Shown here piece after piece: positions 17,581-18,823 of a DNA stretch of 64,000 nt. Made by a program: the position numbers and the translations under genes. The DNA lies in NCBI GenBank assembly GCA_951813575.1, contig OX638375.1:3301042-3365041 (forward strand), given 5' to 3'. The first letter of the stretch is position 1, and each line of letters opens with the position of its first letter. Below the pieces are notes generated by a model, which was not told the origin of the DNA, did not search any database, and saw only the letters and a program-made list of their open reading frames with translations. Source of the DNA: Candidatus Binatia bacterium. GTDB lineage: Bacteria; Desulfobacterota; Binatia; UBA9968; JAJDTQ01.

Positions 17581-17611
17581 CTGTATGTTGAGGAAACCCC
17601 TTGGACAGGCC

Positions 17612-17770
17612 AATCTGAGGGGAGGCATGGGGGGCGCGCCGTCCGTCACAGGGTGAGAAGGCCGTTAGGCCATTCTGCACCGACCCGGAGTGGGGCACCC
17701 CTCATGCCAGTTGTCGCTCCGAACAGATGCAGGGGGAGTAGCCCCGTATAGCAAGTGTGGAGGACAGCGC
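17612..17770 (+). ncRNA. Predicted IS110 bridge RNA with target- and donor-binding loops
   Basis: Hand folding gives two stem-loops with internal loops. Target loop: lower stem 17624-17634 pairs with 17698-17708 (11 pairs, one G-U); left guide CCGTCAC (17643-17649) equals the top strand left of the insertion; apical hairpin 17656-17676 (AGAAGGCC/GGCC-TTCT); right guide CCCGGAG (17684-17690) is complementary to CTCCGGG at 18764-18770. Donor loop: stem TGTC-CTCC (17712-17720) pairs with GGAGGACA (17759-17766); left guide ACAGAT (17723-17728) equals 18757-18762; hairpin GGGG/CCCC (17732-17745); right guide CGTATAG (17745-17751) pairs with CTGTATG (17581-17587) using two G-U. This is the bridge RNA architecture known for IS110 elements. 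Confidence 0.78.
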
Positions 17771-17796
17771 GAATCCTATCAGATAAGGAGGCGTGC

Positions 17797-18741
17797 ATGA
17801 AGGTAATAGCGGGGATCGATGTGGGCAAGCGGGAGTTGGTGGTATCGGTGAGAGGGGGTCCGGTGCGGAGTTTCAAGAACGAGGCCGGGGGCATCCGGGG
17901 GTTGAAGGAGTGGCTTGTGGCAGAAGGAGTGGAGCAGGTGGTGTGCGAGGCGACGGGGGGCTACGAGCGGGGGGTGGTTCAAGGGTTGAGGGGCAAGGGG
18001 ATGGCAGTGCACCGGGCGCATCCGAGTCGGGTGCGGAGTTTTGCTCAGGCGTCGGGGCAAGGGGCCAAGACCGACCGGTTGGATGCGCAGGTGTTGGCGC
18101 TGTACGGGGAGGTGTTCGAGGTGGAGGGGCAGCGGGTGCGGGACCGAGCCGAGGAGGAGTTGCGGGAGGTGGTGGGCCGGAGGCAGCAGTTGGTGGAGCA
18201 ACGGGTGGCGGAACGCAATCGGTTGGAGAAAGGGCTTGGGGGAGCGAGCAAGAAGTCCATGGAGCGGCATGTGGCCTGGCTCGGCAAGGAGATCGCGCGC
18301 TTGGACAAGGCCTTGGAGGCCCTGGTGGGTGGTAACCCGCAGTGGCGCCGGCGCGCGGAGCTCTACCAGAGCGTGAGCGGCGTGGGAAAGCTGACCGCGG
18401 CCGCCTTGCTGGCCCACCTGCCGGAACTGGGCCAAGGGGACGCCAAGGGCATGACCGCTCTGGCCGGCCTGGCGCCGTGGTCCCGCGACAGCGGCCAGCA
18501 TCACGGCAGCCGCGCCATCCGCGGAGGTCGCCAGAAGGTCCGCCGGGCCTTGTACATGGCCGCCCTGGCAGCCATACGGTTCAACCCCGTACTGAAGGCC
18601 TTCTATCGGCGCTTGAGGCGCAAGGGCAAGGTCGGCAAGGTGGCCCTGGTGGCCGTCATGCGAAAGCTCCTGTTGCAGCTCCATGCCATCGCTCGCCGAG
18701 GTACCCCCTGGGTGACGGCTTGTCCCGGAGCTCCTTTTTGA
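17797..18741 (+). CDS. IS110-family transposase (DEDD recombinase)
   Basis: 314 residues from ATG 17797 (AAGGAGG ten bases upstream). The RuvC-like domain has Asp8 (AGIDVGK), Glu51 (VCEATGGYE) and Asp93/Asp96 (KTDRLDAQ). A coiled segment (about residues 110-195) is followed by the Tnp domain with the [19 protein letters not shown] helix-hairpin-helix and the serine segment [31 protein letters not shown]. The family recombines DNA under bridge-RNA guidance. The gene looks intact, so the element may still be active. Confidence 0.95.
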
Positions 18742-18765
18742 CCCTTGATTTCCAACACAGATACT
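18738..18765 (+). promoter_or_regulatory. Candidate outward promoter in the IS110 right end (junction promoter)
   Basis: TTGACC (18738-18743) and GATACT (18760-18765) are separated by 16 bases and lie at the right edge. In the excised circle this promoter would read across the junction into the left end, that is into the bridge RNA, as described for other IS110 elements. Matches to consensus are 5/6 and 4/6; the assignment is inference. Confidence 0.5.
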
Positions 18766-18823
18766 CCGGGCTTGACCCGGGGTCCAGGCTCCCCGTCACC
18801 CCGGGCTTGACCCGGGGTCCAGG
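18766..18823. repeat. REP palindromes downstream of the IS110 element
   Basis: The remainder of the interrupted unit (CCGGGCTTGACCCGGGGTCC) and one full copy follow the IS. They continue the array at 17407-17580, which supports insertion into a pre-existing array. Confidence 0.85.

What the first reader, a model, noticed from the sequence alone, without database searches (positions are those of the whole stretch)
17581..18770. IS110 element with a readable bridge RNA whose guides match its own REP target and ends
Hand folding of the 216-base left end yields two stem-internal loop-hairpin units. In the first, CCGTCAC (17643-17649) equals the top strand just left of the insertion (17574-17580) and CCCGGAG (17684-17690) is complementary to CTCCGGG at 18764-18770 on the right. 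In the second, ACAGAT (17723-17728) equals the right end 18757-18762 and CGTATAG (17745-17751) pairs with CTGTATG at the left end (two G-U). Both sets converge on a CT core. Bridge RNAs are known for IS110 elements; this instance predicts that the element is programmed to enter this REP family.
Basis: partly seen in the sequence, partly recalled or inferred. Interest (0 to 1): 0.9.

Follow-up and report, generated by a model that had tools for sequence, protein, structure and literature searches.

The report
REP-targeting IS110 element with bridge RNA
This is a jumping DNA element of a known kind (IS110) whose own small guide RNA matches both its ends and the repeated DNA motif it inserts into; it is a clean new example of the recently described 'bridge RNA' system rather than a new system.

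Summary
The feature is real. The window holds one of seven copies of an IS110-group element (DEDD recombinase, NF033542, 1.4e-60; nearest solved structures ISCro4 and IS621). Its left end carries a bridge RNA: a covariance model built only from 14 relatives finds it at E = 1.9e-8, uniquely in 64 kb. All seven insertions lie in the same orientation in the genome's REP repeat, and guide and target covary across 17 elements (0 of 3000 permutations reach the observed pairing).

Two details of the reading are wrong. Left junctions of relatives read [CT]TGTA, so the target is the ordinary REP, GTCA[CC]CCGGGC (169 copies of GTCACCCCGGGCTTGA), not GTCAC[CT]CCGGGC; the target core is CC and only the donor core is CT. 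The right donor guide is not CGTATAG but the discontinuous, IS621-like AU...CAAG. In the corrected register the handshake bases and a conserved junction promoter also fall into place.

It is a new member of a known kind, recently acquired (no match at E <= 1e-40 in eight same-genus genomes). The one unusual point is a target core without the nearly invariant T, inferred from junctions and untested biochemically.

The parts
17573..17579 (+). left target half-site in the REP (CCCGTCA, positions 1-7)
   Evidence: GTCA present at the left junction of 6 of 6 copies that keep it
17580..17581 (+). left core dinucleotide CC, contributed by the target
   Evidence: relatives' left ends read [NN]TGTA; canonical REP GTCACCCCGGGC
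17582..17796 (+). left non-coding end (LE) carrying the bridge RNA
   Evidence: fold z = -5.7; CM hit 17623-17765
17582..17586 (+). right donor half-site TGTAT (positions 10-14)
   Evidence: conserved TGTA(T/A) after the core in relatives
17597..17622 (+). 5' stem-loop of the bridge RNA, with a GGCCA motif shared with IS621 and L036
17624..17708 (+). target-binding loop
   Evidence: outer stem covaries in 17 elements
17642..17650 (+). left target guide UCCGUCACA; positions 2-8 Watson-Crick, position 1 G-U, position 9 unpaired
17684..17690 (+). right target guide CCCGGAG; pairs CCGGG of the target (positions 10-14) and the CT core of the incoming donor
   Evidence: GCGGGAG against CTCCCGC in L036
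17691..17692 (+). target-loop handshake guide UG (pairs donor positions 7 and 6, A and T)
   Evidence: first base pairs in 17 of 17 elements
17712..17766 (+). donor-binding loop
17723..17730 (+). left donor guide ACAGAUGC (pairs ACAGATAC of the right end, one G-U)
17748..17755 (+). right donor guide AU..(A)GCAAG, discontinuous as in IS621
   Evidence: GCAAG or ACAAG conserved in relatives and IS621; IS621 pairing in PMC11208158
17756..17757 (+). donor-loop handshake guide UG (pairs target positions 7 and 6, A and C)
   Evidence: first base pairs in 16 of 17 elements
17797..18741 (+). IS110 recombinase, 314 aa; D8, E51, D93, D96 and S232 match IS621 D11, E60, D102, D105 and S241
18745..18750 (+). 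predicted -35 box TTGATT of the junction promoter; with the -10 box TATGTT (17584-17589) the spacing is 17 across the circle junction
   Evidence: TTGAC at this spacing in most relatives
18757..18763 (+). left donor half-site ACAGATA at the right end
18764..18765 (+). right core dinucleotide CT, from the donor
   Evidence: CT at the right junction of 7 of 7 copies and in 17 of 17 elements
18766..18777 (+). right target half-site CCGGGCTTGACC (remainder of the REP)
   Evidence: present in 7 of 7 copies

Best explanation
An IS110-group insertion sequence of the IS621 type. Excision gives a circle whose joined ends, TTGATT-N17-TATGTT, form a promoter for a bridge RNA in the left end. The RNA's first loop pairs with the host REP (UCCGUCAC with the bottom strand of CCCGTCAC; CCCGG with the top strand of CCGGG). 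Its second loop pairs with the element's own ends (ACAGAUGC; AU..CAAG with [CT]TG.AT). The recombinase joins GTCA[CC]CCGGGC to ACAGATA[CT]TGTATG, giving GTCA[CC]TGTATG...ACAGATA[CT]CCGGGC. Shown by sequence: anatomy, guide-target and guide-donor complementarity, covariation, target uniformity. Inferred from IS621 (PMC11208160, PMC11208158): transcription, RNA binding, cleavage chemistry, circle intermediate.
For: Protein family and catalytic residues. Seven copies with identical target flanks, independent outer contexts and invariant guides. Relatives-only CM hit at 1.9e-8. 13 of 19 consensus pairs with two-sided change, 289 of 321 cells paired. Own guide-target score 200 against a maximum of 149 in 3000 permutations. 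L036 (56% identical) has different guides that match a different repeat, and its genome holds three left ends at CTCGTCA[TT]. Tandem REP arrays around several copies become regular only with the 12-base site.
Against: No RNA or activity data. No orthologous empty site: at the one locus where sister genomes aligned (copy L002), the intergenic stretch holding the insertion did not align. Position 9 of the left target guide (A) pairs with neither core base, and IS621 strongly prefers T there. Guide positions in relatives were assigned by hand from scaffold landmarks.
Confidence: 0.93

Rival explanations
1. One reading: the target is a longer REP variant GTCAC[CT]CCGGGC and the donor is ACAGATA[CT]GTATG, so all guides meet at a shared CT core.
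For: Fits all junctions in the genome equally well; four such unoccupied sites exist, three of them REP.
Against: Relatives start [CT]TGTA; the donor-loop handshake bases then fail to pair; the promoter spacing becomes 16 rather than the 17 of relatives; in L036's genome the 100 listed repeats are all 12-mers; it needs all seven insertions in a rare variant and none in 169 ordinary REPs (about 1e-9 if sites were hit in proportion).
Confidence: 0.06
2. The recombinase itself recognises the REP (palindrome or sequence), and the left-end RNA only regulates or stabilises it.
For: REP targeting by IS elements was first ascribed to protein recognition (PMC1525189); IS families without guide RNAs also enter REPs.
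Against: Guides covary with targets across 17 elements whose targets differ widely; IS621, its relative, is RNA-guided in vitro (PMC11208160).
Confidence: 0.03
3. The seven copies spread by duplication of one REP-IS-REP unit rather than by repeated targeted insertion.
For: Copies are 92-99% identical and sit in repeat-rich intergenic DNA.
Against: Left contexts beyond GTCACC differ among copies, as do right contexts beyond CCGGGCTTGACC.
Confidence: 0.02

Closest known systems
IS621 (E. coli, IS110 group; PMC11208160, PMC11208158)
   Same: Left-end bridge RNA with 5' stem-loop, target loop and donor loop; same guide order, handshake positions, discontinuous right donor guide, junction promoter, catalytic residues; inserts in REP sequences.
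   Different: About 34% protein identity; different REP and guides; target core CC instead of CT; right donor guide one base shorter; His at the position of Asn84.
IS110-group element in an uncultured Dehalococcoidia genome (locus L036)
   Same: 56% protein identity, same ends (TGTATGTTG ... ACAGATA-CT), same scaffold, also in an abundant GTCA-NN-CC repeat.
   Different: Target GTCA[TT]CCCGCG with guides CCGUCAUU and GCGGGAG.
IS110-family elements found in REPs (ISPa11, ISPpu9, ISPpu10, ISRm19; PMC1525189)
   Same: IS110 transposases, all copies in REP sequences.
   Different: Other hosts and REP types; their guides were not compared here.
seekRNA of IS1111/IS110 elements (PMC11187229)
   Same: Non-coding-region RNA that selects the target, upstream of tnp in the IS110 type.
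   Different: IS1111 members carry the RNA downstream and have subterminal inverted repeats.

Membership tests
IS110 family, IS110 group (IS621-like) | DEDD/RuvC plus Transposase_20 recombinase with catalytic serine | tested here: met
   Pfam PF01548 and PF02371, NCBIfam NF033542; residues D8, E51, D93, D96, S232
IS110 family, IS110 group (IS621-like) | long left end upstream of tnp, short right end | tested here: met
   left end 215 bases; 24 bases after the stop codon
IS110 family, IS110 group (IS621-like) | bridge RNA with two internal loops, conserved structure | tested here: met
   CM from relatives without the window, E = 1.9e-8; covarying stems
IS110 family, IS110 group (IS621-like) | guides complementary to target and donor | tested here: met
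IS110 family, IS110 group (IS621-like) | CT core in donor and target | tested here: inconclusive
   donor CT in 7 of 7; target core inferred CC in 6 of 6 left junctions. IS621 tolerates GT, AT and TT, with T nearly invariant (PMC11208158). Core variation occurs within the group (TT in L036, L092, L104), so this does not exclude membership.
IS110 family, IS110 group (IS621-like) | promoter re-formed at the circle junction | tested here: met
   TTGATT-N17-TATGTT by sequence, spacing conserved in most relatives; activity not tested
IS110 family, IS110 group (IS621-like) | RNA-dependent recombination activity | not testable with these tools
   needs biochemistry
IS1111 group | bridge RNA in the right end, subterminal inverted repeats | tested here: not met
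   RNA lies in the left end; the right end is 24 bases; inverted repeats not searched separately

The most novel reading that the evidence does not exclude
This element and its Dehalococcoidia relative belong to an IS110 sub-lineage that no longer needs the CT core in the target: here the target core is CC, without the T held to be nearly invariant, while the donor keeps CT. The two unequal cores mark each junction and show that the left core comes from the target and the right core from the donor. A His in place of Asn84 (the residue that reads the base opposite core position 8 in IS621) may go with this.
Probability: 0.45. Interest if true: 0.45.

Novelty: new member of a known kind. Interest (0 to 1): 0.3.

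Why it matters
It is a clean natural test of the bridge-RNA rules far from E. coli: guides, handshake bases and target covary between two 56%-identical elements that enter different repeats. Its CC target core, if confirmed, would widen the range of sites such recombinases can use. Otherwise it confirms published work.

Tried and rejected
Rfam search of the element: only chance matches, no bridge-RNA family. Viral contigs: no relative. Orthologous empty sites in the genus: regions beside copy L002 found, but the intergenic stretch with the insertion did not align. Excision scar as source of the 13-base sites: a precise excision would leave 12 bases, so rejected. GTCA[CT]CCGGGC (6 sites) as target: would leave GTCACTTGTATG on the left, not seen. 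Variovorax-type relatives (L039-L042, L045) left out of the guide table because their ends are of another type. A scan of L036's class for more close relatives found none.

Full report
What is there. The stretch 17582-18765 is an insertion sequence with one gene (17797-18741, 314 aa) that matches PF01548, PF02371 and NF033542 and, among solved structures, ISCro4 and IS621 recombinases. The residues of the composite active site of IS621 (D11, E60, D102, D105, S241) correspond to D8, E51, D93, D96 and S232.

Copies. The 4.21-Mb genome holds seven copies, 92-99% identical; one is split by another insertion, one has lost its first bases to a neighbouring insertion, and one has internal deletions. 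At E <= 1e-40, none of eight genomes of the same genus holds a match, so the element was probably acquired recently. Every left junction that survives reads GTCACC-TGTATG, and every right junction reads ACAGATACT-CCGGGCTTGACC; beyond that the flanks differ. All variable positions among copies lie outside the guides.

Target. The repeat GTCACCCCGGGCTTGA occurs 169 times in the genome against none for the reversed control. Copies L003, L006 and L007/L008 sit in tandem arrays of this repeat, and the interrupted unit equals its neighbours at the junction if the empty site is GTCACC+CCGGGC.

Register. Left ends of most relatives read [CT]TGTA(T/A), so the base after the core is T, as in IS621, where donor position 10 is T (PMC11208158). 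The left core here is therefore CC, from the target, and the right core is CT, from the donor. In L036 (uncultured Dehalococcoidia, 56% identical) the junctions are CGTCA[TT]TGTATG and ACAGATA[CT]CCCGCG; its genome has 189 matches to GTCAT-N(1,2)-CCCGCG, and all 100 listed are 12-mers. Three left ends in that genome read CTCGTCA[TT]TGTATG.

RNA. The left end folds at -106.9 kcal/mol, z = -5.7. Seventeen left ends align into one architecture; 289 of 321 cells form standard pairs and 13 of 19 pairs have two-sided changes (structure and counts come from the same alignment, so this leans towards the structure). A covariance model made from 14 relatives without the window finds 17623-17765 at E = 1.9e-8, the next hit in the window at 0.53. 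Rfam has no matching family.

Guides. With positions taken from the scaffold, the left target guide pairs at 7 Watson-Crick and one G-U of 9 positions, the right target guide at all five positions 10-14, the left donor guide at 8 of 8 (one G-U), and the handshake bases pair across target and donor. Across 17 elements the right target guide pairs on average 4.88 of 5 with its own target and 1.95 with others' targets; the summed score of 200 is not reached in 3000 permutations (maximum 149). The left-guide offset was free within four positions in own and swapped pairs alike. One typed flank (L095) did not match its locus (one C too few) and was kept as typed; it is one of 17 and does not carry the result. 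Some elements (L092, L100, L104; L037, L043) share targets, so they are not all independent. The first handshake base of the target loop pairs in 17 of 17 elements and that of the donor loop in 16 of 17.

Promoter. Joining right end to left end gives TTGATT-N17-TATGTT; most relatives have TTGAC at the same place, as described for IS621 (PMC11208160).

What is unusual. IS621 reads T at core position 9 through the protein, and T is almost invariant there, with GT, AT and TT also active (PMC11208158). Here position 9 of the target is C by inference, and neither guide pairs with it: the left guide has A there, and the right guide has A, which pairs with the donor's T after exchange. The window and L036 proteins have His where IS621 and the other aligned relatives have Asn84. 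IS621 cuts the bottom strand four bases from the top-strand cut (PMC11208158), which would leave a heteroduplex; the observed junctions always keep the top-strand sequence of target (left) and donor (right).

Conclusion. It is a new member of a known kind. REP targeting by IS110 elements and bridge RNAs are both published (PMC1525189, PMC11208160, PMC11187229).

Noticed in passing
L007/L008 (G000:C1:411070-412396) and L004 (left end): Two sister copies are damaged by what looks like the same other insertion sequence (encoded DDE-type transposase fragment by eye, end GTAAACCCGGGGCGGTTCA): one copy is split, one loses the first bases of its left end.
   Followed up: partly
G000:C1:1881461, 2055584, 3052218: Three unoccupied REPs read GTCACCTCCGGGC, one base longer than the common form; origin unknown, not explained by precise excision.
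   Followed up: partly
window 17282-17580 and 18766-18825: Dense cluster of inverted and direct REP copies around the insertion; the genome has 169 exact 16-mers of this repeat in about equal numbers on both strands.
   Followed up: partly
L106 and L108 (Dehalococcoidia genome G392): Left-end remnants of the L036-type element at the same target; L106 keeps the bridge-RNA region while the DNA match to the element stops after 199 bases.
   Followed up: partly
window 18019-18021 (recombinase residue 75) and L036: His in place of the Asn84 of IS621 in the window and L036 proteins only, among eight aligned.
   Followed up: no
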